A DNA stretch of 64,000 bases from Burkholderiales bacterium. Lineage in GTDB: Bacteria; Pseudomonadota; Gammaproteobacteria; Burkholderiales; Burkholderiaceae. The stretch spans positions 1 to 64,000 of the forward strand of contig CANBUA010000001.1 of NCBI GenBank assembly GCA_947372535.1, read 5' to 3'. Shown one piece after another: positions 21,584-64,000 of the stretch. Every line of letters begins with the position of its first letter. Positions within the stretch are counted from its first letter, which is position 1. A model generated the notes under the pieces. It did not search any database. It had not been told where the DNA came from and worked only from the letters and a program-made list of their open reading frames with translations. The position numbers were made by a program, and so were the translations under genes.

Positions 21584-22103
21584 AGCCGGTCTCCCCATTC
21601 ACGGTGATGTCGGAGGCGCCGCTCATGGAAATCGTACGCGTCGAGGACGTGCTCCCCGCGCCGTCGCTGGTGATGCGACCATCAGGCTGGAAGTAGATCA
21701 CGCCCGCTGGCGAGACCGTCGTGCCAGCACTGCTGTTGGTGGTCGATGCCGCCGTGCCGGTGCCATCGCTGCCCTGCAAGGCGGTGCTGCACGAGCTGGC
21801 CGGATTGACGGTGGCCACGGTCAAGGTGACGGACGTGGTGGTCACGGTGGCACAGACCAGGCGTCGATGGCCCACGGCACTTTTTTGCGCATACCGCATG
21901 CTGGCCAGGACCTGATCGTGCCAGCCCGCATCGCGCATGCTCAACGCACCCTGCAGCTTGGGCAGCACGAAACTGGCCAGCGCGCCCACCAGTACCACGA
22001 TCACGATCAACTCGATCGCGGTGTAGCCCCGCACACGCCCGCCCACACGCGGGCTCGCGTGGCGGCTGATGCTCAAAAGGTGATCAGAAGAGCTCTCGCA
22101 CAT
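21573..22103 (-). CDS. mshC: MSHA minor prepilin MshC-like
   Basis: A 176-residue prepilin-like protein. A fairly long leader of about 25 residues precedes GYTAIELIVIVVLVG, in which Tyr replaces the usual first Phe of the mature chain and Glu +5 is kept. The rest is Ser/Thr-rich with the VIYFQPDGRITSDG segment seen in GspH/MshC-type pseudopilins. Its start lies within the end of the first MshQ-like gene (overlap of about 20 bases). Confidence 0.78.
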   Translation of the reverse strand: MCESSSDHLLSISRHASPRVGGRVRGYTAIELIVIVVLVGALASFVLPKLQGALSMRDAGWHDQVLASMRYAQKSAVGHRRLVCATVTTTSVTLTVATVNPASSCSTALQGSDGTGTAASTTNSSAGTTVSPAGVIYFQPDGRITSDGAGSTSSTRTISMSGASDITVNGETGYVQ

Positions 22104-26136: not shown

Positions 26137-26293
26137 CACTACTCCAGGCTGTGATGGCAGCAACATTCCAGACCCGCTTTGGGGCGTGGGCGCCGCAACC
26201 ATTCGATGCAATGGCCAAGGAGCCGCCAATGTCTACATTGTCCTCAGCCTCATTCAGTGATGTGCGTGAAATAAGCCATGAATGTCGGTCGAT

Positions 26294-29200
26294 TCAGAAC
26301 ACATCTCGCAGATGGACGGTTCTCTGGGTCTCGGGCGAATACACACCGAAGCTGATGCGCGCCGACGGATCGCGGTCGTAGGTGGCCGCGCAATTGCCGT
26401 TGCGCGAACGCAGCCAACTCAAGCCGGCGCCCGTGGTCACGGCATGCGTGCTCAGGCAGCCGTTGTCCGCAGTGGTGGCGCCCAGGTTGAACGCAATGCC
26501 CACGCTGCCGGTGGCAGTCGGCGAAGGGGCGCCCAAGGTCAAGGTGCCATTGCCACCGCTGATGACCACCGCATTGGTCGTCGCCCCCACGGGCGTGACC
26601 GTGGTGGTCCAGGCTGCCGTGCTGGCGCCTTTGTTGTCGACATAGCCGGAGCGACTCACCGCCGAGACCGGCACCACCGAGCACACATCGAGGTTGTTGA
26701 GGATCCAGGCCTTGCCGCTCCAGTACTGCGCCTGCACAGGGATGTCCAGGCTCGCTTTCTCGGAGGCAAAAGCATTGGAAAAAGTCAGGCGTCCGCTGCG
26801 CATCCCCAGGGTGGGCTCGGCATATCCGCTCGACGAAATCGAATCCGCGTCCAGCGCACGCAGGGTGATGGCCGTGGCCCCGGTGAGCTTGCTGGTGAAA
26901 GTGAAGACATTGCTGAAAGTCGCGACGCCGGCAACAAAGCTGGCCGGCAGCAAGCTGCCCGTGCCCAAGCTGCCATTGCTGCCATTGACGGCAGACAAGG
27001 TGACATTTTTGGCGAAGTTGGGAGCGGTGTCGACCGTGCCGTCGTAGTTGGCTGTCGTGACACCTGCCGCATTGACCGCCGTCACCGTCTGGGTAAAGGG
27101 CTGGCCGCTGTATGAAAACGAACCGGCCAGACAGGTTTGTGGGGCGGTGATGTTGAAGTGATGTGGAACGAACGGTCCGAAGGCTCCGGTGTAGAAATAA
27201 TCCGTCGCCGCACCCGTGATGAGCCAGTAGTCGCAGTGTTTGGCCGCACCCACCGCAGGATCGCCAAATACGGCGTTGCTGCAAGTGACCGTGCCCGACA
27301 AATCCGTCCGGGATTTGACAAAGCCGCTGGCGCTGTACCGCACCAGGGCCGTGACGCCCGATGGCAAGTTGCAGGTCCAATTTTCGTTCGCGCAGCTGTA
27401 CATGCCGGAAGATGAGCCGCCGGTCACGGGCAAACCTGAACCGAGGTAGTTGCCGCTTGTCAAAAGCGCAGAGACGTCCCCTCGCCCCACCTCGCTCCAT
27501 GTCAGATTGCTGCCTGTCGCCACGCCTGCAGTGAAACTGCCCAAGGTCCCGCTGAACGTGCCATTGACCGCATTGTTGCCTTTGGGCTGAGCGCGTACAA
27601 AAGTCAGCGTTGCGCCTTCTGGCGAACTCTCCCTGCCAAAGTTGGGTGTGGCCACGCTGTTGTAGTTCAAGGCGGTGACGGACGCAGAAAACGTACCGCC
27701 CGCCACGATGTTGCCTGTTCCAACACGGCTGACTCCGAAGGTATACGGCGCGGCAATGACGCTGTCGCTGCCCGCCATGAGCAGGCCAGCATCCGTGCCG
27801 GATCCGGTGTAGCTGGCCGTCAACCCCACCTGTCCGGCATCTGCATACTGGAACGTGGTGGTCGCCACACCGCTGGCGTTGAAGGCCAGGCTCACACTGC
27901 GCCCCGTGCCGTCGCAAGCCGATGTTGCGCTGTTGGCGGCATTGAGTGCAGAGCCGCCCACGATCACTGGCTTGGTGCCCGTGGAGGGGTTGGCATAGGT
28001 GCATTTGAAAAGGACGGATTTGCTGACACTGGCAAAACCCGGCGTGCAGACCGCACCGTTGTCGGATGCTTTCACCGCCGTGACCGTGACCGATTGCGGA
28101 ACATCCGAGTAATGGTTGGGCACATCAAACAGCAAGGCGGATGTGCTGGTGGTGAAGTTGCAACTGCCACCACTCGTGGCCGCCACACCCATGCCGCAAT
28201 AGGTGCCCGGGCTGCCCAGCGGGACGGGCACCACCAGCGACAAGGCCGCCGTCACCGTGCCGGCCGTGGTCGCTTGGGCCGTGGCCGTGGCGGTGCCACT
28301 GGCGGGGATGGTGAACAGCTGCGTGCCTGGATTGACCGTCACGCCCGTGCCGCTGACGGTCAGCGTGCCAGCGACGCCGCCAGTGTAGACCGAGGTGCAG
28401 GAGGCATCCACGCAGGCCTTGAGCGTGTAGGTGATGGGGTTGCAAGTCACGCCGCTGCTGGCCGATGTGGTCACCTCGATATGGTGCAGGCCCAGGCTGA
28501 TCGTCATGGCGCAGCTGTTGCCGTTGGCCGCCGCCACCCCCATGCCGCAATACAGAGAGGCTGCGGGCGCGGGGCTGGGCGAGGTGATCGATGCCGTCGC
28601 CGTGCCGAAGGTCATGGTTGCAGCCACCGTCGTCGATGAGGTGCCTGCCGTGATGCTGAAGGCCGCCGCAGGCGAGTAACTGGCGACCACGCCACTGATG
28701 GCCAAGGTCCCCGTGACGCCCCCGGTGTAGAGCGTGCTGCAGGCGGCATCGGCGCAGGCCTTGATCGTGTAGGTCACGCTGACCCCAGCCGCCGCGCTGC
28801 TGGCCGCCGTGGTGAGTTCCAGGTGATGCAGCCCCAGCACCGTCAAGGTACAGGCGTTGCCGCTGGCGGCCGCCACGCCCATGCCGCAATACACCGCCGG
28901 CGTGCCGCTGATGGTTCGACTGGGGGCGCTCAGTGCCACCGTGGCGGCGCCACCAGAGCCCATGCTGGCCTGGATGGTGGTGCTGCCGCTGCGGGCGCCG
29001 ATGGTGTAGGTCGAGGTTCCGGGGTAGCTGACGGTGCCGGCCCCCGTGATGCCCAGGGTGCCGGACAAGCCCGTGGTGTAGAGCGTGCAGGCCGCGTCGG
29101 AGCAGGACTTGACCGTGAAGGTCACTGGCGTGCCAGCCGTGACGGTCGCGCCTGGCGTGGTGATCTCGACATGGTGAGGGCCCACCAGCGGGTCCACGTA

Positions 29201-29896
29201 GCTGAGGTTGTCAATGTCGAAGTTCTGGCTGGCGTTGCTGCCCAGGAAGCCGCAACCACCGCATCGGCTGTTGAAGAACTGCACCTTGGTGATGGTGACG
29301 CCTGAGGCCGGCGTATAAGTCAGGTAGGCGCTGTCATAGGAGTTCCCGCCCAGGATGAAAGACAGCAGATTGCTCAGGAAACTCGCCAGCCAGTTGCTGG
29401 GAACATACTGGCCCACGCAGGTCGAGGTGGCGGTGCTCTGGCAGTTGTAGAGCGTGACCGTGGTGTTGTCGCTGAAGGTGTAGGTCACGTACTGCGAGTT
29501 CTCGTCCTTGAGGGACAAGCCCCACAGGAAGGCCACATAACTGGTCCCGCCATTGGGAAAATTGATGGTCAGGGACGAAGCACTGGCCCCTGTGCCCGAG
29601 GCGATCTCCACCGAGTTGCCCGCAAAGCCTGTCAGCCCGGTGCTGGTGTCGTTGTACTTGATGGAGGCGCCACTGGCCAGGGAGGATGAATAGCTCAGCC
29701 GTGTCGCAGTCTGCTCGGCGGCCAGGGTCACGGTGCTGAAGTCGACCGTGCGCAGGTTGGCGTACGCCGTCGGGGTGTTGAAACCAGCTTGCCCGGTCGT
29801 GGTCATGACCCAGCCTGCCTGCGCGGGCTGCCATGGGCAGGCCAGCAAGGCCCACAGGCCCAGCCACCCCAGCAAACGACGCATCATCTTGTTCAC
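26294..29896 (-). CDS. mshQ: Giant MshQ-like protein with three tandem modules and DUF6701 region (copy 2)
   Basis: A 1200-residue exported protein. The GTG start at 29896 has GAGG nine bases upstream; the signal peptide ends near QPAQA. An N-terminal domain of about 210 residues (PEP-CTERM-exported-protein-like, with VAFLWGL and FDIDNLSYVD) leads to three tandem modules of about 115 residues (see the repeat entry), then the same DUF6701-type C-terminal region as copy 1, ending VHLRDVF. There is no LamG domain. The 64-base gap to copy 1 and shared orientation suggest duplication and divergence of the adhesin gene. Its function as an alternative adhesin is inferred. Confidence 0.8.
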   Translation of the reverse strand: MNKMMRRLLGWLGLWALLACPWQPAQAGWVMTTTGQAGFNTPTAYANLRTVDFSTVTLAAEQTATRLSYSSSLASGASIKYNDTSTGLTGFAGNSVEIASGTGASASSLTINFPNGGTSYVAFLWGLSLKDENSQYVTYTFSDNTTVTLYNCQSTATSTCVGQYVPSNWLASFLSNLLSFILGGNSYDSAYLTYTPASGVTITKVQFFNSRCGGCGFLGSNASQNFDIDNLSYVDPLVGPHHVEITTPGATVTAGTPVTFTVKSCSDAACTLYTTGLSGTLGITGAGTVSYPGTSTYTIGARSGSTTIQASMGSGGAATVALSAPSRTISGTPAVYCGMGVAAASGNACTLTVLGLHHLELTTAASSAAAGVSVTYTIKACADAACSTLYTGGVTGTLAISGVVASYSPAAAFSITAGTSSTTVAATMTFGTATASITSPSPAPAASLYCGMGVAAANGNSCAMTISLGLHHIEVTTSASSGVTCNPITYTLKACVDASCTSVYTGGVAGTLTVSGTGVTVNPGTQLFTIPASGTATATAQATTAGTVTAALSLVVPVPLGSPGTYCGMGVAATSGGSCNFTTSTSALLFDVPNHYSDVPQSVTVTAVKASDNGAVCTPGFASVSKSVLFKCTYANPSTGTKPVIVGGSALNAANSATSACDGTGRSVSLAFNASGVATTTFQYADAGQVGLTASYTGSGTDAGLLMAGSDSVIAAPYTFGVSRVGTGNIVAGGTFSASVTALNYNSVATPNFGRESSPEGATLTFVRAQPKGNNAVNGTFSGTLGSFTAGVATGSNLTWSEVGRGDVSALLTSGNYLGSGLPVTGGSSSGMYSCANENWTCNLPSGVTALVRYSASGFVKSRTDLSGTVTCSNAVFGDPAVGAAKHCDYWLITGAATDYFYTGAFGPFVPHHFNITAPQTCLAGSFSYSGQPFTQTVTAVNAAGVTTANYDGTVDTAPNFAKNVTLSAVNGSNGSLGTGSLLPASFVAGVATFSNVFTFTSKLTGATAITLRALDADSISSSGYAEPTLGMRSGRLTFSNAFASEKASLDIPVQAQYWSGKAWILNNLDVCSVVPVSAVSRSGYVDNKGASTAAWTTTVTPVGATTNAVVISGGNGTLTLGAPSPTATGSVGIAFNLGATTADNGCLSTHAVTTGAGLSWLRSRNGNCAATYDRDPSARISFGVYSPETQRTVHLRDVF
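28135..29185 (-). repeat. Three tandem about-115-residue modules within MshQ copy 2
   Basis: Each module starts with (G)xHH(V/L/I)E(I/L/V)TT, contains a paired-cysteine segment of the type C(S/A/V)DA(A/S)CTxxYT(T/G)G(L/V)xGTL, and ends with YCGMG(V)AAxxGxxC. A single related module lies in copy 1 at about 23930-24255. The conserved cysteine spacing suggests Ig-like disulfide-bonded units. A fourth, degenerate unit may follow the third. Confidence 0.75.
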
Positions 29897-30028
29897 GGTG
29901 GATTACCTCGACAAGCAGGCACGCTCGACAGGAGACGCCTTCAGGACATTGTGCGCATCAGGCCTGTTTTTCGCATGCCAAAAACGACCACAAATCCCGT
30001 CCTTGTCCTGCTTTCTGCAAAAGCTTGA

Positions 30029-30442
30029 TCAGAATCCAGCACCGATGCCGTCGAAGGTGGCCGTTTGAAGGGTCGAGTTCTGGGTGACGGTGCAAGCCGT
30101 TGACACCCCCGAGGTCAAAGCCCCGGCCGCCACGGTGTAGCCAGTAGGAACCTCGCTGTTGTGGAGGAGGGCTTTGACGCCCGTGGCGCTGGTGCCATCG
30201 CAGTTGTTCACCAGGACACACTTGCCTGCCGTGGGCACATTGCTGGTGACCAGACAACCACCATAGTTGATGGACATGGCACTGCCCAGCGTGCCAACCA
30301 CCCCATTGAGCGCCGCGCTTTCCGCATTGGCCTGCACGTTCACAAACTTGGGCAAGGCCGTGGCCGCCAGGACGCCGAGGATCACGATCACCACGATCAG
30401 CTCGATCATCGTGAAGCCTGACTGCATTCGCTTCTTGGTCAT
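30029..30442 (-). CDS. mshA: MSHA major pilin (copy 1)
   Basis: A 137-residue type IVa/b-like major pilin. A nine-residue leader ends in Gly, followed by FTMIELIVVIVILGVLAATA with Glu +5. Four cysteines (GGC, GKC, NNC, TAC) can form the pilin disulfides. GGAG stands before the ATG at 30442. Over the 128 mature residues it differs from the neighbouring copy at about 22 positions by my reading, and the last 20 residues are almost identical. Transcription runs from the second copy through a perfect palindrome into this gene. Confidence 0.92.
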   Translation of the reverse strand: MTKKRMQSGFTMIELIVVIVILGVLAATALPKFVNVQANAESAALNGVVGTLGSAMSINYGGCLVTSNVPTAGKCVLVNNCDGTSATGVKALLHNSEVPTGYTVAAGALTSGVSTACTVTQNSTLQTATFDGIGAGF

Positions 30443-30474
30443 GGGCACTCCAATGTCTTGATGGCTTGACAAGC

Positions 30475-30504
30475 GCGCTAATCCAGCACGTGCTGGATTA
30501 GCGC
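30475..30504. repeat. Perfect 30-bp palindrome between the two pilin genes
   Basis: All 15 base pairs match around the centre at 30489/30490: each arm reads GCGCTAATCCAGCAC. In the leftward transcript it would lie 45 bases after the stop of pilin copy 2 and 33 bases before the start of pilin copy 1. No U tract follows on either strand, so a simple intrinsic terminator is unlikely. It could be a protein-binding operator or an mRNA hairpin that stabilises the upstream pilin message. Confidence 0.85.
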
Positions 30505-30549
30505 ATTCGGCGTCAGGGACCCGGCCCAGGCCCGTTGTCAGCCGTTGGC

Positions 30550-30969
30550 TTAGAAGCCGGCACCGATGCCATCGAAGGTGGCTGTCTGGAGGGTCGACGT
30601 CTGCGTCACGGTGCAGGCAGTCGAGACACCCGACGTCAGCGCGGCCGCAGCCACTGTGTAGCCCGTGGGCACCGTATTGCCTTGCAGCAGGGCTTTGATG
30701 CCAGTCGCGCTAAGGCCGTCACACGTGTTCACCAGCACGCACCGGCCTGCCTGGGGGGCGTTATTCGTCACCAGGCATCCACCATAGTTGACAGACATGG
30801 CACTGGCCATGGCACCGGCCACACCAGCCAAGGCAGCCGCTTCCGCGTTCTGACGCACGTTCACGAATTTGGGCAAGGCCGTCGCGGCCAGAACGCCCAG
30901 GATGACGATGACCACGATCAATTCGATCATGGTGAAACCAGTTTGAATGCTGCGGTTGCTGCGTTTCAT
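30550..30969 (-). CDS. mshA: MSHA major pilin (copy 2)
   Basis: A 139-residue major pilin with an 11-residue leader ending in Gly and the same FTMIELIVVIVILGVLAATA helix as copy 1. The four cysteines and the C-terminal TLQTATFDGIGAGF are conserved. GAGG precedes the ATG at 30969 by about nine bases. Changes against copy 1 cluster in the segments after the helix and around residues 85-100, likely surface-exposed. It is first of the pair in transcription order and follows mshG after 94 bases, room enough for its own promoter. Confidence 0.92.
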   Translation of the reverse strand: MKRSNRSIQTGFTMIELIVVIVILGVLAATALPKFVNVRQNAEAAALAGVAGAMASAMSVNYGGCLVTNNAPQAGRCVLVNTCDGLSATGIKALLQGNTVPTGYTVAAAALTSGVSTACTVTQTSTLQTATFDGIGAGF

Positions 30970-31063
30970 GGAAGTACCTCTTTCAACAATTAAAGGCCGG
31001 GGTTATTGCCGCTCAGCACGGCTTGGTCGTCAATGCACGATGATTCTTTTTCGACATGTCAAA

Positions 31064-32329
31064 TCATTTCTTGAACGACATTTGTCCAAGATTCCACATC
31101 GGGAGGAAAACGCCGAGGGCCAGGATCAACACCATGATCCCGAGGAAGACGATGAGGATGGGCTCGATCTGCTGCGAGAGGGTCTTGAGTGCATATTGCA
31201 CATCGTTTCCATACATCTCGCCGATCTCTTCGAGCAGCTCGTCGATCATCCCGGTCTCTTCGCCAATGGCGATCATCTGCAGCACGACCGGCGTGAACAC
31301 ACCGGCCCAGGCCGCTGCATGCGCCATGCTTTCGCCGCGCATGATGTGGTCTTTCATGCCTTCGACACGCTGGCTGATGTAGGCGTTGTCGGCCGTCATG
31401 GCCACGCCGCCCAGGGCTTTTTCGATGGGCACACCGCTGCGCAAAGCCAGTGCGAACGCCCGTGTGAAGCGCGCCAGTGAGGCTTTCGTCACGATGTCGC
31501 CCACCAGCGGCATCTTGAGGACCGAGCGGTCCCAGATGAGGCGACCCTCCGGTGTGGTCAACCAATACTTGAACAGCGCGAACGCTGCAAACGCGCCAAT
31601 CAACATGGACCAGCCATGCTTGACCGTGAACTCCGACGTGGCCAACAAGATCTTGGTTGCCAACGGCAATTCCGTGCCAAAACCCTTGAACACCTCCGCA
31701 AAAGCGGGGATGACCATGACATTGATCACACCGATGGCCGCGACCATGGCCATGATCACAAAGCTGGGATAGCGCAACGCCGACTTGACCTGCTGGCGCA
31801 TGAACTGCTCGAACTCAAGGTGCTGGAACAAGCGCAGGAAGACCTCTTCCATGCGGCCCGAGGCCTCGCCCACCTTCACCATGGACACGAAAAAGTTGTC
31901 GAACACCTTGGGGTGGTGCAGCATGGCGGCGGAAAACTCGATGCCGCCCTCCAGGCTGCGGCGCAGGTCCAGCAGCACCGCTTTCATGGTCGGATTGGTC
32001 GTTGTTTCCTGCAAGCCAGCCAGCGCCCGCAGGATGGGGACACCGGCCTTGAACAAGGTGTAGATCTGCCGACAAAACAGCATCACATCGGTGGTCAGGA
32101 TCTTGGGCTGCATCCAGGAGGGCTTGCTCACGGGCTCGCCTGCGCCACCACCGCCCCCGCTGCTGCCGGCCGGCTTGCTGGCGGACTGCATGTTGTTGAC
32201 CGACTTGACGGTCAGGGGCACCAGGCCACGCATGGTCAACTGGTCAGCGGCGGCCGAGGATGAATCGGCATCCTCGACGCCTTCGACCATGCCATGCGGC
32301 CCCCGGGCCTTGTAGACGTATTTGCCCAT
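31064..32329 (-). CDS. mshG: MSHA platform protein MshG (GspF/PilC family)
   Basis: A 421-residue polytopic inner-membrane platform protein for pilus assembly. Two GspF repeats are visible, each beginning with an FxRQ(I/M)xxLxxAGVPI-type segment (CRQIYTLFKAGVPI and RAFALALRSGVPI). Three hydrophobic segments lie near residues 195-215, 245-265 and 390-412. A Gly-rich linker (about 55-66) precedes the first repeat. The ATG at 32329 overlaps the mshE stop (TGATG). Confidence 0.92.
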   Translation of the reverse strand: MGKYVYKARGPHGMVEGVEDADSSSAAADQLTMRGLVPLTVKSVNNMQSASKPAGSSGGGGGAGEPVSKPSWMQPKILTTDVMLFCRQIYTLFKAGVPILRALAGLQETTTNPTMKAVLLDLRRSLEGGIEFSAAMLHHPKVFDNFFVSMVKVGEASGRMEEVFLRLFQHLEFEQFMRQQVKSALRYPSFVIMAMVAAIGVINVMVIPAFAEVFKGFGTELPLATKILLATSEFTVKHGWSMLIGAFAAFALFKYWLTTPEGRLIWDRSVLKMPLVGDIVTKASLARFTRAFALALRSGVPIEKALGGVAMTADNAYISQRVEGMKDHIMRGESMAHAAAWAGVFTPVVLQMIAIGEETGMIDELLEEIGEMYGNDVQYALKTLSQQIEPILIVFLGIMVLILALGVFLPMWNLGQMSFKK

Positions 32330-34035
32330 CAATCCACCTGTGCGCTCACGCGCATGGCCTCATCGACGGTCGTGCGACCCTCCAGGACCAGGCGCGCGGC
32401 ATCGCGGCGCAAGGTATTGCCCGCCATGTGCTCTTTGGCGGCCTTGCCAAACACATTGGAGCGTTCGTCGGACATGGCCTCGATGAGGTCCTGCGTCATC
32501 TCCAGGAACTCGTAGACACCGGTGCGGCCTTTGAAGCCCGTCTTGGCGCACTCGGGGCAGCCCCGGCCGTGGCGCAAAGGCTTGCCCTCCACCTCGTCGC
32601 CCCATTCGCGTTTGAGCCAGACGGTCTCCTGGGGCGTGGGCTCGTAAGGCGCGGCGCAGGCCAGGCAGAGCGTTCGCACCAGTCGCTGAGCGACCACCAG
32701 TTGCACGGACAAGGCCACCATCCAACGCGGCACCCCCATGTCGATGAGTCGCGCGGGCGTGGTCACCGCGTCATTGGTGTGCAAGGTTGACAAGACCAAG
32801 TGGCCCGTCATGGCCGCGCGCATGCCGATCTCGGCCGTGGTGCGGTCGCGCATTTCACCGACCAGGACGACATCGGGATCCTGCCGCAAAGCAGCCCGCA
32901 GGATGCGCTCGAAGGTCAGGTCGATCTTGTCCATCACCTGCACCTGGTTCAGGCCGGGCAGGCGGTACTCCACCGGGTCTTCCACCGTGATGATCTTGCG
33001 CTCGGTGGTGTTGAGCGCGTTGAGCGCCGCATACAGCGTGGTGGTCTTGCCGCTGCCAGTCGGCCCCGTCACCAGGATGATGCCGCTGGGCTTTTCAATG
33101 GCCCGCTTCATCGCCGCCAGCATGGGGCCAGGCATGCGCAGCTTTTCCAGGTCGAGCATGCCGCTGCTCTGGCTGAGCAGGCGCATCACCACCGATTCGC
33201 CGTACTGCGCGGGCATGGTCGAGATCCGCACATCCACCGTGCCGTCTTTGAGGCGCACGGCAAAGCGGCCGTCCTGCGGCAGGCGCTTTTCAGAGATGTC
33301 CAGGCCGGACATGAGCTTGAGCCGCAAGGCCACGGCGCCGGAAATCTTGGAGTCGGCCTCGGTCTGGATCTGCAACTCGCCGTCGATCCGAAAACGGATG
33401 CGCAGGTTTTTTTCCTGCGGCTCGATGTGGATGTCCGACGCACGCGATTTCAAGGCCTGCTCGAACACCGAATACAACAGGCGCACCACCGGCGCATCCT
33501 CGTTGCTGGTCGTGTCCATGCCGAGCAGGTCGCCCAGGTCGGTCTCGGTGCCGGCCAACTCGCTGGTCAGCTCGCGCGCCAAGCCTTCGATCTCCTGCGT
33601 GCTCGTGTAGACGCGGTCCAGCGCCGCGGCCAGGTGACTCTCGGTAACCACGGCCAGGTCGATGGCGCGCTTGAGGACACGGCCGATCTCGTCGAAGGCG
33701 TAGATGTCGGTCGGATCGGCCATGCCGATCATCAGGCCGGACGGTGGATCGTCCAGCACGATGGCATGCATGCGCCGCGCCTGTGCTTCAGGCAGCAACT
33801 GGGCCAGCTCGGGCCTCAGCGGGTAATGGGCCAGGTCGATGTAGGGCGCATGGAGTTGACGGGCCACGGCCTTGGCAATCTGCGCTTCCGTGATCCAGCC
33901 CATCTCGACCAGCACCTGGCCAAGCTTGCGCCCGCTGCTCTTCTGGGCACCCAGCCCTTGCTCAAGCTGCTCCTGCGTGATGAGTGAATCCTGAACGAGC
34001 AGGTCACCCAATCTGAATTTCTGTGGACGCGGCAT
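32329..34035 (-). CDS. mshE: MSHA assembly ATPase MshE with c-di-GMP-binding N-domain
   Basis: A 568-residue GspE/PilB-family hexameric ATPase that powers pilus extension. The C-terminal half has Walker A GPTGSGKTT (about 322-330), the Asp and His boxes, and a zinc-type tetracysteine (CLACAAPY ... CPECAKTG). The first about 60 residues contain two MshEN half-motifs (RLGDLLVQDSLI...QLEQGL and KLGQVLVEMGWI...QIAKAV), which bind c-di-GMP in Vibrio MshE. It lies directly between mshL and mshG, without the mshM and mshN genes usually found there. Confidence 0.95.
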   Translation of the reverse strand: MPRPQKFRLGDLLVQDSLITQEQLEQGLGAQKSSGRKLGQVLVEMGWITEAQIAKAVARQLHAPYIDLAHYPLRPELAQLLPEAQARRMHAIVLDDPPSGLMIGMADPTDIYAFDEIGRVLKRAIDLAVVTESHLAAALDRVYTSTQEIEGLARELTSELAGTETDLGDLLGMDTTSNEDAPVVRLLYSVFEQALKSRASDIHIEPQEKNLRIRFRIDGELQIQTEADSKISGAVALRLKLMSGLDISEKRLPQDGRFAVRLKDGTVDVRISTMPAQYGESVVMRLLSQSSGMLDLEKLRMPGPMLAAMKRAIEKPSGIILVTGPTGSGKTTTLYAALNALNTTERKIITVEDPVEYRLPGLNQVQVMDKIDLTFERILRAALRQDPDVVLVGEMRDRTTAEIGMRAAMTGHLVLSTLHTNDAVTTPARLIDMGVPRWMVALSVQLVVAQRLVRTLCLACAAPYEPTPQETVWLKREWGDEVEGKPLRHGRGCPECAKTGFKGRTGVYEFLEMTQDLIEAMSDERSNVFGKAAKEHMAGNTLRRDAARLVLEGRTTVDEAMRVSAQVD

Positions 34036-34047
34036 GGCAGGCTCCGT

Positions 34048-35826
34048 TCAGCGACTGGGCGTAGGGGGGCTGATCATCGACGTGTTGGGCTCGTTGCTCA
34101 TCCAGCCGGAGCCGTCTTCGCCGATCACCGTGGGTCGAATCAGCACCACCAGTTCGCGCTTGTTGGTATAGGTCTCTTTCTGTCGAAACAGCCCACCCAC
34201 ACCGGGCACCTCGCTCAGGCCGGGCACGCCATTGCGGTCGGCCGTGGTCGTCACCCGCATCAGTCCGCCGATGGCGACGATGTGGCCGTCCATCACCTTG
34301 ACGATGCTGTCGGTCTCATTGATGGAGCTGGTCGCCAAGGGCAGCTTGTACAAGCCCAGGTTGCCCAGGTCGATGGTCTTTTGTTTCTCGGTGACCGCGC
34401 TGATCGCCGGGTGGATGTGCATCATGACCATGCCCGAATCGTCGATCTGCGGCGTCACATCCAGCGAGATGCCACTGAAGAAGGGCTGCAAGGTCAGGGT
34501 GGGCGTGGTCACGGTGTTGTTGCCCGAGCTCGTAGAATCGGTCTTGACGCCCGTCACGAACAATTCGTCGCTGCCCACCTTGAGCACGGCTTTCTGGTTG
34601 TTCATGGTCGCGATGCGCGGGCTGGAGAGCACCTGCACATCGCCCTGCGTCTGCAGGAAATTGATCAAGGCCATGAAGTTGGTGGTCTGCACGGCCAGGC
34701 CATAAAAGCCCGCCGCGCCAGCTGTGAAAGTCGGCCCCTTGGTGATCGACACATCCGCGCTGGAGATCTGGTCTTGCTTGAGCGTCACGCCCGGCGCCAG
34801 GTTGGCAATGCCGCCCCCCCGGGAGCCATGGTTGCCGAACAAGGACCAATTCACGCCGGTGGCGGACGAACTGGTCAGTTGCACCTCGACGATCTTGGCC
34901 TCCAGCATCACTTGGCGCTCGATGTTGACCTGCACGGCCTTGAGGAAATCCGTCACATGGCGGTGCTCGGCCGGGGTGGCGCGGATCACGACCACGCCAG
35001 CGGCCGGGTTCATCACCACGCCACGGCCATTGGCGGTCCCCACCATCGAGACCAGCGATTCCTGCACCTCTTTCCAGAAATCGCTGTCCGAGGTTGTGCG
35101 CACATGCGCGGTGTCATCGCTGCGAGCGCCGCTGTTGCTCGACGAACCACCAGATGAACTGCCGGATGAACCGCCGCTCGACGAATTGGAGGAGCCGCCC
35201 GATGACGAGCCACTGTTCGATCCACCCGTGCCCTGGATTGAGCTGGAAGACACATGCAGCTCCGACAGCCCCTGACGGCGTCCGGGCAGGTAGTTGATGC
35301 GGTAGATCCGCGTCTGCACCGTGTTGGGATAAACGAAGACGCGGTTGCCGGCGATTCGGTAGTCGTAGCCGAAGAGTTCGCGCAGCACCTCCAGGGCCTC
35401 GGGCACGGTGGTGTTCTTCAGGCCGATGGTGATGGCGCCCGACAGCTCGGGCGAGACCAGGATGTTGTAGCCCGTGTTCAAGCCCAATTGCAGGAAGACT
35501 TGCGCCGCCGGTGCGTTGTTGACCGACAGTTCGAAGCGGGCATCGAGGTCGCGGGCGCTGCCCGACACCACCACTGCTTTAGGCACAGGATTGGCCAGGC
35601 TGGTGCTCATGATGCCGGCCGCCGTCGCAGGGTATTGATCGAAGCTCTGTGCCTGCTGGACGGGCGTAGAAAAGTCCGCGCCTGGATCGGCTGCGGCCTG
35701 GTCCGCCGCAGCCAGCGCTGCGTAGTCGGGCTTGGGTGCCTTGTGCTTCTTGCCGGCAGCCTGGGCTTGATCAGCCATGGCCACGGCCAGCACAGTGGTG
35801 CACAGCACGATTTGGAAGCGATTCAT
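34048..35826 (-). CDS. mshL: MSHA outer-membrane secretin MshL
   Basis: A 592-residue secretin that forms the outer-membrane pore for the pilus. A signal peptide ends near QAQA (about residue 23); no lipobox is seen. An STN-type domain follows (FELSVNNAPAAQVFLQL, about 97-165), then a Ser/Gly/Asn-only linker of about 40 residues, an N1-type domain and the secretin core with VLSSPRIATMNNQKAVLKVG and the VPGLSEVPGVGGLF gate region. The stop lies 12 bases before mshE, and the gene overlaps mshK by four bases. Confidence 0.94.
   Translation of the reverse strand: MNRFQIVLCTTVLAVAMADQAQAAGKKHKAPKPDYAALAAADQAAADPGADFSTPVQQAQSFDQYPATAAGIMSTSLANPVPKAVVVSGSARDLDARFELSVNNAPAAQVFLQLGLNTGYNILVSPELSGAITIGLKNTTVPEALEVLRELFGYDYRIAGNRVFVYPNTVQTRIYRINYLPGRRQGLSELHVSSSSIQGTGGSNSGSSSGGSSNSSSGGSSGSSSGGSSSNSGARSDDTAHVRTTSDSDFWKEVQESLVSMVGTANGRGVVMNPAAGVVVIRATPAEHRHVTDFLKAVQVNIERQVMLEAKIVEVQLTSSSATGVNWSLFGNHGSRGGGIANLAPGVTLKQDQISSADVSITKGPTFTAGAAGFYGLAVQTTNFMALINFLQTQGDVQVLSSPRIATMNNQKAVLKVGSDELFVTGVKTDSTSSGNNTVTTPTLTLQPFFSGISLDVTPQIDDSGMVMMHIHPAISAVTEKQKTIDLGNLGLYKLPLATSSINETDSIVKVMDGHIVAIGGLMRVTTTADRNGVPGLSEVPGVGGLFRQKETYTNKRELVVLIRPTVIGEDGSGWMSNEPNTSMISPPTPSR
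35125..35240 (-). repeat. Ser/Gly/Asn low-complexity linker in MshL
   Basis: About 40 codons encode almost only Ser, Gly and Asn, with repeated SSGGSS units. Such short in-frame repeats are prone to slippage, so length may vary between strains. It joins the STN-type domain to the next periplasmic domain of the secretin. Confidence 0.7.
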
Positions 35827-48725: not shown

Positions 48726-48756
48726 AAAAAAAAGAGCCCCGGCGTTGGCCGGGGCT
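48726..48756 (-). terminator. Intrinsic terminator of the candidate small RNA
   Basis: A perfect 9-bp stem AGCCCCGGC/GCCGGGGCT with a 4-base loop (48735-48756) is followed on the minus strand by eight U residues (48733-48726). No minus-strand protein gene lies upstream that it could serve. Confidence 0.9.
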
Positions 48757-48840
48757 TTGAAGCCTTAACGCTGTCATCACGGTAAGGCACCTGCTCAGGG
48801 AGGAAAAGCAGGGAATGAAGGCCCGAAGGCGTATCATCCG
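48726..48840 (-). ncRNA. Candidate small RNA (about 115 nt), or hemJ 5' leader with attenuator
   Basis: On the minus strand a strong promoter, about 115 transcribed bases and an intrinsic terminator are lined up with no gene in between. The RNA would fold into four hairpins: SL1 (48837-48815, UUCG loop), SL2 (48812-48790, 6-bp CCUGCU/AGCAGG stem with an 11-base loop displaying CCUCCC), SL3 (48788-48762, GCCUUA/UAAGGC stem) and SL4, the terminator. The CCUCCC loop is complementary to Shine-Dalgarno sequences, as in several proteobacterial sRNAs. Since hemJ starts 65 bases beyond the terminator, a cis-acting leader is the alternative reading. Confidence 0.7.
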
Positions 48841-48945: not shown

Positions 48946-49959
<1,014 letters not shown>

Positions 49960-58986: not shown

Positions 58987-59492
58987 TTGGGATCCAGCGT
59001 GAGGTCGGCGCTCATGGCTTGGGCCGCTTGCGTCTGCCGTGTGCGGAAAGCATCGAGCTTGTCGCGCAGCACCGGATCGCCGCTGGCCAGCATCGCCACG
59101 GCGAACAGGGCCGCGTTGGCCGCGCCAGCCGCGCCGATGGCGAAGGTGGCCACGGGCACACCCTTGGGCATCTGCACGATGGAGTGCAGGGAATCGACGC
59201 CTTGCAGGTGGCGCGAAGGCACGGGCACGCCCAGGACAGGCACGGGCGTCTTGGCCGCGAGCATGCCTGGCAGGTGGGCGGCACCGCCCGCGCCGGCGAT
59301 GATGGCGCGCAGACCGCGTGCACGGGCCTGCTCGGCGTAGGCGAACAATTCGTCGGGCATGCGGTGGGCGGAGACCACCTTGGCCTCGAAAGGCACCCCG
59401 AACTCGGTCAGAATCTCGGCAGAAAGGCGCATGATGTCCCAGTCACTGCTGGAGCCCATCACCACGCCAATCAGGGGCGTTGTGCTGTTCAC
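58983..59492 (-). CDS. purE: N5-carboxyaminoimidazole ribonucleotide mutase
   Basis: A 169-residue class I PurE that converts N5-CAIR to CAIR. The GSSSDWD motif (about 13-19), the SAHRMP segment with catalytic His, and [10 protein letters not shown] are all present. It is first of a purE-purK-tsaC minus-strand run and divergent from the thioredoxin-TPR gene (73 bases). Confidence 0.97.
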
Positions 59493-59565
59493 AGCGCTCT
59501 CCTCAGGTCAGAAAACCTCGATTTTAGGCGCTCGCGTTACCAGCGGGCCTGCCACGACAAAGAAC

Positions 59566-60546
59566 ATGATCGACATCACCATCGAAAACTTCGAAACCGA
59601 CCTGCTGGCGGTGTCCGCCCAGGTCCCCGTCCTGCTGGACATCTGGGCCCCCTGGTGCGGCCCCTGCAAGCAGCTCGGCCCCGTGCTGGAGCGCCTGGAG
59701 GAGGCCTACGGCGGCCGCTTCATCCTGGCCAAGGTCAATGCCGACGAGCAGCCCGAAATCTCGGGCCAACTCTCGCAGATGTTCGGCGTGCGCTCCATCC
59801 CTTTTTGCGTGATGTTCACGGGCGGCCAGCCGGTCGATGGCTTCGTCGGCGCCCTGCCCGAGGACAAGATCCGCGAGTTCCTGGACAAGCACGTGCCGCC
59901 AGGCGACGATGAGCTGGATTCGCCAGATGCCTTGGCCCAGGAAGAGGCCGATGCGGCTGACCAGGAGGAAAGCGGCGATGACATCTTGAACAAGCTGCAA
60001 GAGGCCTTGCTTCGTGATCCGGGCAATGACGAAGCGCGCTTCGAGTTCATCAAGCTGATGCTCGAGCGTGGTGACGTGGCTCAGGCGCAGGAAGCTTTCC
60101 AGCCCATCGCCGGCCGCGCCGCTGGCCCCATTCCGGAGATGCGTGTGCTGGCCTTTGGCCTGTATGTGGCCGCCGCGCAGGCCGCGCCAGGCGCACGGTC
60201 CATCGAGGCGCTGGCGGCGGCCATTGCCACCAACAAGCGCGATTTCGAGGCCCGCTTCGAGCTGGCCCAGGTGCACTTTGCCGCCGGTCGATTCCTCGAC
60301 GCCATGGAAGCGCTGCTGGAGATCATCATGCGCGACAAGGCCTGGTCGGACGAAAAGGCCCGCAAGACCTACGTCGCCATTTTGGAGGTGATGACCAAGC
60401 CGCTGCCCAAGCCCAAAGCGGGCGGCAAACCCGCGGCGGCGCCGGGCGACCAACCCAAGCTGGAGGTGGCCGGCAAGATCGACGTCACGCCGGCCGATCC
60501 AGTGATCGATCAATATCGGCGCAAGCTCAGCATGGCGCTGTTTTGA
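59566..60546 (+). CDS. cnoX: Thioredoxin-TPR chaperone-redoxin (CnoX/YbbN family)
   Basis: A 326-residue protein: a thioredoxin domain (about 1-110) with an intact WCGPC active site (Cys31, Cys34), an acidic linker and a TPR-like helical C-terminus. The E. coli YbbN has lost one of these cysteines, so this member may keep redox activity in addition to its holdase role with GroEL. A tail of about 55 residues rich in Lys, Pro and Ala precedes the end. The ATG at 59566 was chosen because the thioredoxin fold begins there. Confidence 0.92.
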   Translation: MIDITIENFETDLLAVSAQVPVLLDIWAPWCGPCKQLGPVLERLEEAYGGRFILAKVNADEQPEISGQLSQMFGVRSIPFCVMFTGGQPVDGFVGALPEDKIREFLDKHVPPGDDELDSPDALAQEEADAADQEESGDDILNKLQEALLRDPGNDEARFEFIKLMLERGDVAQAQEAFQPIAGRAAGPIPEMRVLAFGLYVAAAQAAPGARSIEALAAAIATNKRDFEARFELAQVHFAAGRFLDAMEALLEIIMRDKAWSDEKARKTYVAILEVMTKPLPKPKAGGKPAAAPGDQPKLEVAGKIDVTPADPVIDQYRRKLSMALF

Positions 60547-60764: not shown

Positions 60765-61661
60765 ATGATGAACACCTCCAGCGCACTGCGCTCGCCCCTG
60801 AACCGCCTGAGCCTGGGCGTCGCCGCCTTCGTGGTCTCCATGGCCGCCGTTCTGCCCGCCCACGCCGTCGAAAACGGCCCCGCGCCCACCAAGACCTACG
60901 TCGAAAGCGAGAAGGGTGGCTACACCGTCGGCACAGTCAAGATCTCCAAGGCCGATGCCAAGACCTACGGCGGCGCCACCGTGTACTACCCCACGGGCAC
61001 CGGCCAGACCTTCGGCGTGGTCTCGCTGACCCCGGGCTTCACGGGCTTTCAGGCGGTCTACGCCTGGCTGGCCACACGCCTGGCCTCCTTCGGTTTCGTC
61101 GTGATCAACCTGGACACCACCACCGTGCTGGACCAGCCACCGGCCCGCGCCAAGCAGATGGTCGATGCCATCAACCAGGTCATCGCCCTGAGCAAGACCG
61201 CCGGCTCGCCGCTCAATGGCGTGGTTGACGCCGAACGCCGCGCCGTGATCGGTCACTCCATGGGTGGCGGCGGCACGCTGCTGGCCGCCACGGCTGATCC
61301 ATCGCTCAAGGCCGCTGTGGCCCTGACGCCCTGGAGCCTGCTGACCAAAAATTTCCCCACACTCGCAGTGCCCACCATGATCGTTGGCGCCGAAAAGGAC
61401 ATCATCGCCCCCAACAGCGGCCACTCCGACCGCTTCTGGGCCAGCTTTGACGACCAACTGGTGCGTGGCTACGTGATGATCGCCGGCGCCGACCACCTGG
61501 TCGCCACCAGCTTGTCCAACGCCAAGTACCGCACCACACTGGCCAAGTCCACCGTCTCCTGGCTCAAGCTCTTCCTCGACGAAGACAGCCGCTACACCGA
61601 CCTGGTCAAGACGGGCAACAACGGCGCCGACTACAAGAGCTACCAGATCGAAGGTTTCTGA
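60765..61661 (+). CDS. Secreted PETase/cutinase-like polyester hydrolase
   Basis: A 298-residue secreted hydrolase of the PET hydrolase/dienelactone-hydrolase-type alpha/beta family, close in length to Ideonella PETase. A signal peptide ends near AHA. The triad is Ser165 (GHSMGGGG), Asp212 and His244; the oxyanion and aromatic pocket use Phe92 (GFT), Met166 and Trp190. By alignment to Ideonella PETase, Trp159, Ser214 and Ile218 correspond to His164, His220 and Phe224, the arrangement of classical cutinases. No cysteine occurs anywhere, so both PETase disulfides are absent. AAGG lies nine bases before the ATG. An intrinsic terminator follows. Confidence 0.88.
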   Translation: MMNTSSALRSPLNRLSLGVAAFVVSMAAVLPAHAVENGPAPTKTYVESEKGGYTVGTVKISKADAKTYGGATVYYPTGTGQTFGVVSLTPGFTGFQAVYAWLATRLASFGFVVINLDTTTVLDQPPARAKQMVDAINQVIALSKTAGSPLNGVVDAERRAVIGHSMGGGGTLLAATADPSLKAAVALTPWSLLTKNFPTLAVPTMIVGAEKDIIAPNSGHSDRFWASFDDQLVRGYVMIAGADHLVATSLSNAKYRTTLAKSTVSWLKLFLDEDSRYTDLVKTGNNGADYKSYQIEGF

Positions 61662-61706
61662 TCTCTGGGGCACAACCCCGGCGCCTCACGGCGCTTGCAC
61701 GGCATC

Positions 61707-61738
61707 AGCCCCTGCGCCACAAGCCCAGGGGCTTTTTT
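61707..61738 (+). terminator. Intrinsic terminator after the first PETase-like gene
   Basis: An 8-bp stem AGCCCCTG/CAGGGGCT (61707-61714 and 61726-61733) with an 11-base loop is followed by a T6 tract (61733-61738). It lies 45 bases after the stop codon and before the sulfurtransferase gene. Confidence 0.88.
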
Positions 61739-61767
61739 CATGCGATGGCTTGCGACACAATGGCCAG

Positions 61768-62667
61768 ATGCCAACACCGACGACCACCCCTGATTCGCCT
61801 CTGATCAGCGCGCCCGCCCTGCTGGCCATTCATCAGGCCGCTGCCCGCGATGGCGCCCCAGATCTGCTGGTCCTGGATTGCCGCTTCCAACTGGCCGCCC
61901 CGGATGCCGGCCAGCAGGCCTACGCACAAGGCCACATCGATGGCGCCGCTTATGCGCACCTGGATCACGACCTGTCCGGCCCGAAAACCGGGCTGAACGG
62001 CCGCCACCCGCTGCCCACGCCCGAAGCCCTCGCCGCCACACTGGGCCGCTGGGGCGTGACACCCCAGACGCAGGTCGTGGCCTATGACGATGCCGGCGGC
62101 ATCTTCGCGGCCCGCGCCTGGTGGTTGCTGCAGTGGTTGGGCCATGCGCGCGTGCAGGTGCTCGATGGCGGCTGGGCGGCGTGGGAGGCCACCGGTGGCC
62201 CGATCAGCGCAGCGCAGCCGTCGCGCACGCGAACTCAGGTGCCTGCGCACGCGCACCAAGGCTGGGTGGTCACCACGCCCGAGGTGCTGGCGCACGTTCA
62301 GGCCGGCGACCACGACGCCCAGTCGACCGCCATGCGCCTGCTGGACGCCCGCACCGCCGAGCGCTTTCACGGCATCGGCGAGACCATGGACCCCGTCGGT
62401 GGCCACATCCCCGGCGCGCGCAACCGCTGGTTCGGGCTCAACCTGCAAGAAGGTGGCCGCTTCAAGGCCCCAAGCCAGTTGCAGGCTGAATTCACCGAGC
62501 TGCTAGCCGGCCAAAGCGCCACCACCCTCGTGCACCAGTGCGGCTCCGGCGTCACCGCCTGCCACAACCTGCTGGCCATGGCCCAGGCTGGGCTGGGCAT
62601 GGGTCGCTTGTATGCGGGCTCGTGGAGCGAATGGTGCGCCAACCCGACCAGACCCGTGGTGAGCTGA
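61768..62667 (+). CDS. Sulfurtransferase (rhodanese family, 3-mercaptopyruvate type)
   Basis: A 299-residue protein of two rhodanese domains (about 10-150 and 160-295). The catalytic Cys258 lies in CGSGVTA, the active-site loop of mercaptopyruvate sulfurtransferases (SseA), instead of CRKGVTA of thiosulfate sulfurtransferases. It would move sulfur from mercaptopyruvate to thiols or cyanide. The ATG at 61768 was preferred over a TTG six codons upstream. It stands 29 bases after the terminator. Confidence 0.93.
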   Translation: MPTPTTTPDSPLISAPALLAIHQAAARDGAPDLLVLDCRFQLAAPDAGQQAYAQGHIDGAAYAHLDHDLSGPKTGLNGRHPLPTPEALAATLGRWGVTPQTQVVAYDDAGGIFAARAWWLLQWLGHARVQVLDGGWAAWEATGGPISAAQPSRTRTQVPAHAHQGWVVTTPEVLAHVQAGDHDAQSTAMRLLDARTAERFHGIGETMDPVGGHIPGARNRWFGLNLQEGGRFKAPSQLQAEFTELLAGQSATTLVHQCGSGVTACHNLLAMAQAGLGMGRLYAGSWSEWCANPTRPVVS

Positions 62668-62724
62668 ACCTTCGGGCTTGCGATTAAACTCCAGGCTTCC
62701 AGCCAGGACCACATCAAACCTCCC

Positions 62725-63333
62725 ATGATTCCTGCACTTGAAGCGCTAGAGCGTCTCCGCGAAGGCAACCGCCGTTTCGTGGCCAGCCTTGACCAGGGCG
62801 GCCTGCACGTTACCCCGCCACAGCGTTTCGAGCTGTCGCAGGAGCAGGAGCCTTTTGCCATCATCCTGGGCTGCTCCGATGCCCGCGTGCCGGCCGAGAT
62901 CGTCTTCGATCAGGGCCTGGGCGATCTGTTCGTGATCCGCGTGGCCGGCAACATCGTCGCGCCGTCGCAAGTGGGCAGCGTGGAGTTCGCCGCTTCACGC
63001 TTCAACACGCGCCTGGTGGTGGTGCTGGGGCACTCCAACTGTGGCGCGATCACGGCCACCATCGAGCAGTTGCAGCAACCGGTCGAGACCCAGTCGCGCA
63101 ACCTCAGCTCCATCGTGGACCGCGTGCGCCCGTCCGTCGAAGGCCTGCTCAAGACAGAGCTGCGCCATGACCTGCCCGCCCTGGTTCATCACGCCGTGCG
63201 CTCGAACGTGCACGTCTCGGTCAACCACCTGCGCTACGGCTCGCCCGTGCTGGAGCAACTGATCCGCAGCGAGGGCCTCATGATCGTGGGCGCCGAGTAC
63301 TCGCTGGAAACCGGCGAAGTCGAGTTCCTCTGA
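62725..63333 (+). CDS. Beta-carbonic anhydrase
   Basis: A 202-residue beta-class carbonic anhydrase that interconverts CO2 and bicarbonate. Zinc ligands are Cys50 (CSDAR, with Asp52-Arg54 dyad), His103 and Cys106 (HSNCG). The length and the GSVEFAASRF segment are normal for the class. It lies 57 bases after the sulfurtransferase and 140 bases before the second PETase-like gene, in which gap I see no clear promoter. Confidence 0.95.
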   Translation: MIPALEALERLREGNRRFVASLDQGGLHVTPPQRFELSQEQEPFAIILGCSDARVPAEIVFDQGLGDLFVIRVAGNIVAPSQVGSVEFAASRFNTRLVVVLGHSNCGAITATIEQLQQPVETQSRNLSSIVDRVRPSVEGLLKTELRHDLPALVHHAVRSNVHVSVNHLRYGSPVLEQLIRSEGLMIVGAEYSLETGEVEFL

Positions 63334-63473
63334 AACCATCCGATTTGTTACCCCCCGATACACGGGGCTGGGCGCTGGCGTAAACACGGGTGGCTTGATC
63401 GTTATACGAGCCCTAGCATGCGTGGCGCACTCGCTCATTGGCGAACGCCCCCTACACAAGGACTCTTTCAAAC

Positions 63474-64000
63474 ATGACGACGATCATCGCCAAGCTGGCC
63501 ATCGCGGCCAGTGCCGCCGTTCTGGCCACTGCCGCTTTTGCCCAACAGCAAGGCCCTGAACAAACCGCTGCACAGCTGGAAGCGGGTAAAGGCCCCTTCA
63601 CAGTGGCCACGGCCAAGATCGCCACGCCTTCGGGCTACGGCGGCGGCACGGTGTACTACCCCACCAATGCCAGCGGCAAGGTCGGCCTGATCGTGGTCGC
63701 GCCCGGCTTCACGGAAACGCAATCGGCCATGAACATGTGGGGCCCCATCCTGGCCTCCAACGGCTTTGCCGTGATCAACATCGACACCAAGTCCACGCTG
63801 GACCAGCCCCCTGCACGCGCCACGCAAATGATGGCGGCGCTCAAGCAGGTCTCTGACCTGAGCAAGACCACAGCCTCGCCTTACTACAACAAGATCGACG
63901 TGACCCGCCAGGCCGTGATGGGCCACTCCATGGGCGGCGGCGGTACCCTGGTCGCCGCCACGGCCAACCCTGCGCTCAAGGCCGCCATCCCGGCAGCCCC
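63474..64000 (+). CDS. Secreted PETase/cutinase-like polyester hydrolase, 5' part (runs off window)
   Basis: The visible 175 residues are the N-terminal part of a second enzyme of the same family as the 60765 gene. A signal peptide ends near AFA. Close matches to PETase-type proteins are GPFTV (40-44), [13 protein letters not shown] (53-65), PGFT (77-80, oxyanion Phe79), TLDQPPAR and GHSMGGGG with nucleophile Ser152. His151 again stands where Ideonella PETase has Trp159. The visible part has no cysteine. AAGGA precedes the ATG at 63474. The Asp and His of the triad are beyond the window. Confidence 0.88.

What the first reader, a model, noticed from the sequence alone, without database searches (positions are those of the whole stretch)
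60765..64000. Two cysteine-free PETase/cutinase-like hydrolases within 3.2 kb
Two secreted members of the PET-hydrolase family lie in the same orientation, separated by a sulfurtransferase and a beta-carbonic anhydrase. Both have the GHSMGGGG elbow; the complete one has the full triad, the Trp and a cutinase-type His220/Phe224 pair instead of the Ser/Ile seen in Ideonella PETase, and neither visible sequence has any cysteine, so the family's usual C-terminal disulfide is missing. Such a pair has potential polyester-hydrolysing capacity and an unusual stability basis. Homology and residues are seen; PET activity is inference.
Basis: partly seen in the sequence, partly recalled or inferred. Interest (0 to 1): 0.8.

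Follow-up and report, generated by a model that had tools for sequence, protein, structure and literature searches.

The report
One cysteine-free PETase-like enzyme
The window holds two related, probably secreted enzymes of the plastic-degrading PETase family; the first has lost both of the family's stabilising sulphur bridges, while the second only looked bridge-free because the window cuts it short, so this is an unusual variant of a known enzyme kind, not a new system.

The parts
60765..61661 (+). P1: PETase-family serine hydrolase, 298 aa, probable Sec signal peptide, no cysteine (=P0001)
   Evidence: PF12740 270.5 bits; translation equals P0001; model pLDDT 93.4; signal peptide read by eye, no predictor run
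61257..61259 (+). P1 catalytic Ser165 codon (TCC) in GHSMGGGG
   Evidence: invariant in the alignment
61389..61391 (+). P1 Ala209 codon (GCC) where IsPETase has Cys203
61398..61400 (+). P1 catalytic Asp212 codon
61494..61496 (+). P1 catalytic His244 codon
61500..61502 (+). P1 Val246 codon (GTC) where IsPETase has Cys239
61768..62667 (+). rhodanese-domain sulfurtransferase (neighbour, probably unrelated in function)
   Evidence: PF00581 92.8 bits; NF008557 below its cut-off
62725..63333 (+). beta-carbonic anhydrase (neighbour, probably unrelated in function)
   Evidence: PF00484 131.9 bits
63474..64000 (+). P2: PETase-family serine hydrolase, first 175 of 283 aa (full length = P0053); Ser152 codon at 63927-63929
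   Evidence: PF12740 198.8 bits for the fragment; 100% over 175 aa to P0053; C196/C233 in P0053
59566..60546 (+). thioredoxin-like (YbbN-type) gene upstream; with purE/purK it marks a slot shared with other Aquabacterium genomes
   Evidence: thioredoxin models hit the 59359-60546 frame below their cut-offs; synteny in L160; start chosen by eye; name YbbN recalled

Best explanation
P1 and P2 are two anciently diverged paralogues of the secreted, IsPETase-related polyester-hydrolase family, encoded by a bacterium of or near the genus Aquabacterium. Each is an alpha/beta hydrolase that cuts ester bonds with a Ser-Asp-His triad in an open cleft with an aromatic clamp (Phe and Trp at the Tyr87 and Trp185 positions of IsPETase). 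The likely natural substrates are insoluble aliphatic esters and polyesters (cutin-like material, lipids, bacterial polyesters), with PET at most a side activity. In their clade the C-terminal disulfide is usually gone and the active-site disulfide is usually kept. P2 keeps that one pair. P1 has lost it as well, both partner cysteines being replaced (Ala209, Val246), so its active-site loops must be held by packing; its beta8-alpha6 stretch is two residues longer than in IsPETase. Shown: family, triad, cysteine states, derived loss, fold by prediction. Inferred: secretion, bond formation, substrate, how P1 stays stable.
Against: No activity data for P1, P2 or any measured close relative. IsPETase C203A/C239A falls from Tm 46.8 to 33.6 C with dramatically decreased activity (PMC5785972, passages), so P1 might be weak or unstable. 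P1 has Leu and P2 Gln at the IsPETase Ser238 position, unlike types I and II. Signal peptides were not run through a predictor. In PMC10547765 Dh4, 79% identical to IsPETase, showed no activity (its expression was not confirmed), and six of the eight enzymes gave no large PCL zone, so family membership does not guarantee activity.
Confidence: 0.8

Rival explanations
1. P1 and P2 are general secreted carboxylesterases/lipases for small or lipid esters with no useful polyester activity; PETase is only the family's name.
For: Many relatives are called dienelactone hydrolase or triacylglycerol lipase by their sources. The NCBIfam BHET-hydrolase model NF051441 is hit far below its cut-off (P1 259.5 of 520 bits). 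No terephthalate gene was recognised among the 24 window proteins scanned for families; the rest of the window was not scanned.
Against: Aromatic clamp, triad and fold match known polyester hydrolases; an enzyme from the same genus label is active on PCL and PET.
Confidence: 0.3
2. P1 is a decaying paralogue: loss of the active-site disulfide marks relaxed constraint.
For: The same Cys loss in IsPETase is destabilising. Two other pair-less lineages (L143/L156, P0150/P0161) also lost the Trp185 equivalent.
Against: P1 keeps Ser, Asp, His, Trp190 and H220/F224; two Cys-free orthologues, P0002 (89%) and P0003 (87%), are complete.
Confidence: 0.12
3. The pair is a functional operon in which the carbonic anhydrase and sulfurtransferase support polyester degradation.
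For: Same strand and close spacing in the window; a family member also lies near the sulfurtransferase gene in five other genomes (positions).
Against: Of 17 regions around PETase-like genes compared with the window's neighbours, one (L160) held any of them, and none held the carbonic anhydrase. The sulfurtransferase is found in 41 of 42 genomes, a PETase-like gene in 28 of 42. A terminator-like site follows P1 at 61721-61734, but 3 sites were found where 1.9 are expected, so it is weak.
Confidence: 0.03

Closest known systems
IsPETase (type IIb; PDB 5xjh) and other type II PET hydrolases
   Same: Fold, triad, aromatic clamp, extended beta8-alpha6 loop; P2 keeps the C203/C239 cysteine pair.
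   Different: No C-terminal disulfide; P1 has no disulfide at all; stretch two residues longer; His at 159, Leu/Gln at 238, His/Phe at 214/218.
Type I cutinases (T. fusca 5zoa, LCC 4eb0)
   Same: 5zoa is P1's top structural hit, by about one Z unit over IsPETase; small residues at the C203/C239 positions, as in P1 (Ala/Ala in actinobacterial rows; Ala in PMC5785972).
   Different: Type I has the C-terminal disulfide and no extended loop; P1 lacks the bond and has the loop.
Dh5, Aquabacterium sp. MBI3384080.1 (PMC10547765)
   Same: Same genus label, same broad family, extended loop with partly type I subsite II, Leu at the fourth subsite-II position (taken by me as 238, Leu in P1 too); shown active on PCL and PET powder.
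PET30 of Kaistella jeonii (PMC8767016)
   Same: Lacks the active-site disulfide, with Gly/Val in its place, close to P1's Ala/Val.
   Different: Keeps a disulfide at C262-C285.
GuaPA (PMC12599313)
   Same: A PETase reported thermostable without a disulfide bond (passage).
   Different: From deep-sea metagenomes, with residues that fit neither type I nor type II; not compared here by sequence.
Type III PETases (HaloPETase1, PMC12442448)
   Same: Also break the type I/II disulfide scheme.
   Different: GHSQG motif and other disulfides (C64-C126, C273-C276); P1 and P2 have GHSMG and neither pair.

Membership tests
Pfam PF12740 PETase | score above the gathering cut-off (28 bits) | tested here: met
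   P1 270.5, P2 fragment 198.8 bits
PF12740 PETase-like serine hydrolase | Ser-Asp-His triad and GxSxG | tested here: met
   P1 S165/D212/H244; P2 S152/D199/H231 in P0053
Type I PET hydrolase (Joo 2018) | one disulfide, C-terminal | tested here: not met
   no Cys at the 273/289 equivalents in P1 or P2
Type I PET hydrolase (Joo 2018) | no extended loop | tested here: not met
   21 residues in P1 and P2 against 16 in 91 of 108 C-terminal-bond-only rows
Type II PET hydrolase (Joo 2018) | two disulfides | tested here: not met
   P1 has no Cys, P2 only the active-site pair
Type II PET hydrolase (Joo 2018) | extended beta8-alpha6 loop | tested here: met
Type IIb PET hydrolase | Trp159 and Ser238 | tested here: not met
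   P1 His/Leu, P2 His/Gln
Type IIa PET hydrolase | Phe or Tyr at the Ser238 position | tested here: not met
   P1 Leu, P2 Gln; orthologues P0002 and P0121 have Phe
Type III PETase (Turak 2025) | GHSQG motif and its two displaced disulfides | tested here: not met
   GHSMG; P1 has no Cys, P2 only C196/C233
BHET hydrolase BdeA (NF051441) | curated cut-off 520 bits | tested here: not met
   P1 259.5, P2 fragment 161.7; full-length P2 was not scanned
Dienelactone hydrolase PF01738 | gathering cut-off 21 bits | tested here: not met
   P1 20.5 bits; P0053 carries a precomputed PF01738 mark beside PF12740
PET-degrading enzyme | hydrolysis of PET | not testable with these tools
   needs purified protein

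The most novel reading that the evidence does not exclude
P1 represents a natural, active, fully disulfide-free branch of the IsPETase-like family. It arose by joint loss of both partner cysteines within an Aquabacterium paralogue radiation in which disulfides are lost, kept or re-paired as units: C203-C239, C239 with a cysteine nine residues on (33 sequences), C273-C289, or none, with three separate losses of the active-site pair by parsimony. The radiation would be a natural experiment on how PET hydrolases stabilise the active site without that bond.
Probability: 0.45. Interest if true: 0.55.

Novelty: new variant of a known kind. Interest (0 to 1): 0.35.

Why it matters
In IsPETase the active-site disulfide is costly to remove (Tm 46.8 to 33.6 C), and wild-type IsPETase was made better in a disulfide-forming E. 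coli strain, although two engineered variants were not (PMC11587651, passages). A natural relative that has dropped both bonds, with close sisters that keep one, would show which substitutions compensate and might give enzymes that fold in a reducing cytoplasm. The type I/II scheme, which counts disulfides, also leaves out a branch that made up 111 of the 310 sequences sampled here (one of them, the reference, by a labelling fault). For the scan, the 'pair of cysteine-free enzymes' is a window-edge artefact in one of its two members.

Tried and rejected
Rejected: (1) both enzymes cysteine-free: P0053 refutes it. (2) Recent tandem duplication: P1 and P2 are 52% identical over the mature part and sit in different subclades; their respective orthologues P0003 and P0121, with a third copy P0062, are all listed with a longest contig of 24,804 bp, taken as one contig, order unknown. 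(3) P1 as the orthologue of the gene in the same slot elsewhere: the genes near the sulfurtransferase in G803, G528, G802 and G804 are one other paralogue (82-92% identical in the five pairs computed, 44-46% to P1, GHSAGGG, no Trp at the 185 position). (4) Functional operon: little support. (5) Sequencing error at the Cys positions: two base changes needed at each, and shared by P0002 and P0003.

Led nowhere: the genome-contig scan returned 18 loci, none close (45% identity at best), mostly actinobacterial among the stronger ones; no whole genome is held for the window. No third copy was seen on the 68,016-bp contig, but only the best 120 of 714 and of 196 proteins were listed. Paper searches for Aquabacterium PET hydrolases or for cysteine-free or disulfide-less ones gave GuaPA and PET30 as the nearest precedents; the library lacks most subscription papers, including the Aquabacterium parvum lipase paper, seen only in a reference list. 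The structure models gave no coordinates, so Cys-Cys distances were not measured.

Limits of the counts: the 310-row alignment holds relatives of P1 and P2, not a census of the family; sequences under 240 aa and loci L004-L008 and L010 were left out. Row REF_7osb ends at residue 286 and is therefore mislabelled as lacking the C-terminal bond. Labels allow one column of slack for C203, C239, the +9 cysteine and C273, and four for C289; the pair table allows none for the first three. Ten of the 310 rows have no cysteine after IsPETase residue 31 (P0001-P0003, L054, L081_1392, L139, L140, L143_2060, L156_6484, L009), so P1 is not alone; several of the others are divergent or odd. Trees use rows thinned at 80% identity per label (141 rows); the careful tree has 76 rows, with two long-branched rows (L137_720, P0142) dropped and 15 outgroups chosen by hand. 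Inside the 61-row clade, P0131 and P0149 carry both bonds and P0133, P0137 and P0139 only the C-terminal one, so loss of the C-terminal bond is not a clean single event.

Full report
What is there. P1 (60765-61661, +) is a complete 298-aa protein and P2 (from 63474, +) is cut by the window end after 175 aa. Both are PF12740 PETase members well above cut-off (270.5 and 198.8 bits against 28). Between them lie a rhodanese-type sulfurtransferase (PF00581) and a beta-carbonic anhydrase (PF00484). P1 has S165, D212, H244, W190, H220 and F224. The 60 rows shown of each PDB sequence search carry names such as PET hydrolase, cutinase, esterase, lipase, PBS(A) depolymerase, alpha/beta hydrolase or DLH domain-containing protein.

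The cysteine claim. P1 has no cysteine. The second half of the claim fails. On the alignment these fall on IsPETase C203 and C239, the bond beside the active site. Neither protein has the C-terminal pair. Of the 221 proteins listed by the two homology searches (best 120 of 714 and of 196), four have no cysteine: P0001, P0002, P0003 and the 190-aa P0162.

Cysteines come as pairs. In 310 aligned relatives, C203 and C239 occur together in 146, C239 with a cysteine nine residues further on in 33, none of the three in 130, and there is one exception (P0207). The C-terminal pair is complete in 143, absent in 162 and single in 5. Of those five, the reference ends early and P0130 has a second cysteine near its end that falls outside the tolerated columns; P0174, P0218 and L081_281 were not examined. 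By class: active-site bond only 111, C-terminal only 108, both 35, re-paired 33, none 23. Joint presence and absence is what covalent partners would show. That P2's pair is a disulfide is inferred.

When the bond was lost. On the careful tree of 76 rows (trait columns blanked) P1 and P2 lie in one 61-row clade (100/100), 48 rows of which are labelled active-site bond only. P0001-P0003 form a Cys-free clade (100/99) whose next relatives P0004 and P0005 keep both active-site cysteines. The seven rows without a pair need three changes (5-95% range over 200 bootstrap trees: 3 to 3). Holding all seven together is rejected (p-AU 6.7e-46), as is holding P0001-3 with L143/L156 (p-AU 0.0007). These groups were named after the tree was seen, so the p values are indicative. 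In P1 the pair became Ala209 (GCC) and Val246 (GTC). Joo 2018 reports Ala at both positions in the other PET hydrolases they compared (PMC5785972, passage), and PET30 has Gly/Val (PMC8767016, passage).

Types. Joo 2018 defines type I by one C-terminal disulfide and no extended loop, and type II by an additional disulfide and an extended loop (PMC5785972, passages). Turak 2025 adds type III with other bonds and GHSQG (PMC12442448, passages). P2 (loop, active-site pair only) and P1 (loop, no cysteine) fit none of these. They probably work like type II enzymes; by the strict bond count they are not members of type I, II or III.

Organism and copies. PurK and PurE of the window are 80% and 81% identical to those of G803. 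The genus of G803 and G528 is taken as Aquabacterium because contig lengths of G800 and G814 (40,949; 316,150; 126,524) equal those of proteins named Aquabacterium. In that genus 28 of 42 genomes carry at least one family member at E<=1e-20, up to five. In the genus of G713, which holds the 200,976-bp Piscinibacter gummiphilus plasmid, 7 of 11 do, up to six; in the genus of G587, 11 of 16 do, up to two. In a wider draw from the family of G226, with P0053 as query, 11 of 399 do. Close pairs recur (G713, G581, G587, G814, G799), so two copies within 3.2 kb is not remarkable here. Four genomes (G803, G528, G802, G804) have a family member about 1.1 kb upstream of the sulfurtransferase gene on the same strand, and G790 has one about 160 bases downstream (positions). 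Gene order was read only in G803 (L160). The gene of these four is another paralogue.

Function. The most likely function is secreted hydrolysis of insoluble esters and polyesters. The nearest published support is Dh5 of Aquabacterium, active on PCL and PET powder (PMC10547765, passages). Against PET as the natural substrate: no terephthalate pathway gene was recognised among the 24 window proteins scanned, which is not the whole window, and PET is recent. Signal peptides are judged by eye from the N-termini.

Verdict. A correct and useful family call, with one headline feature half wrong and another (His/Phe) ordinary. What remains is a natural disulfide-free PETase-like enzyme in a radiation where disulfides appear to have been lost repeatedly. 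It is a new variant of a known kind; GuaPA (PMC12599313, passage) already shows that a PETase can do without a disulfide.

Noticed in passing
P0070 and 32 other rows, e.g. L122, L125, L126, and one ORF each of L143 and L156: A re-paired cysteine arrangement: the C239-equivalent cysteine is kept, C203 is lost, and a new cysteine appears nine residues downstream in the extended loop (33 of 310 sequences).
   Followed up: partly
L143 and L156 (G814:C39:55723-57383, G799:C16:64614-66309): Same-strand neighbours of which one has the re-paired cysteines and the other no mature cysteine, GHSAGGG and no Trp185 equivalent.
   Followed up: partly
   Followed up: no
L160 5864-6772: At the same chromosomal slot in G803, and near the sulfurtransferase in three other genomes, lies a conserved paralogue with GHSAGGG and Ala at the Trp185 position, triad kept.
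   Followed up: partly
L035 850-12759: A PETase gene on the 201-kb plasmid of Piscinibacter gummiphilus SBD 7-3 lies between IS1071 and IS91-like transposase genes, near two genes annotated as lipase secretion chaperones.
   Followed up: no
window 22084-35826, -: Cluster with a MshEN/T2SSE ATPase, a secretin and a 1381-aa DUF6701/laminin-G protein, looking like an MSHA-type pilus locus (MSHA name recalled).
   Followed up: no
window 48728-48814, -: Rfam anti-hemB sRNA (59.7 bits, cut-off 49.5) on the opposite strand just upstream of hemB (porphobilinogen synthase) at 48958-49959.
   Followed up: no
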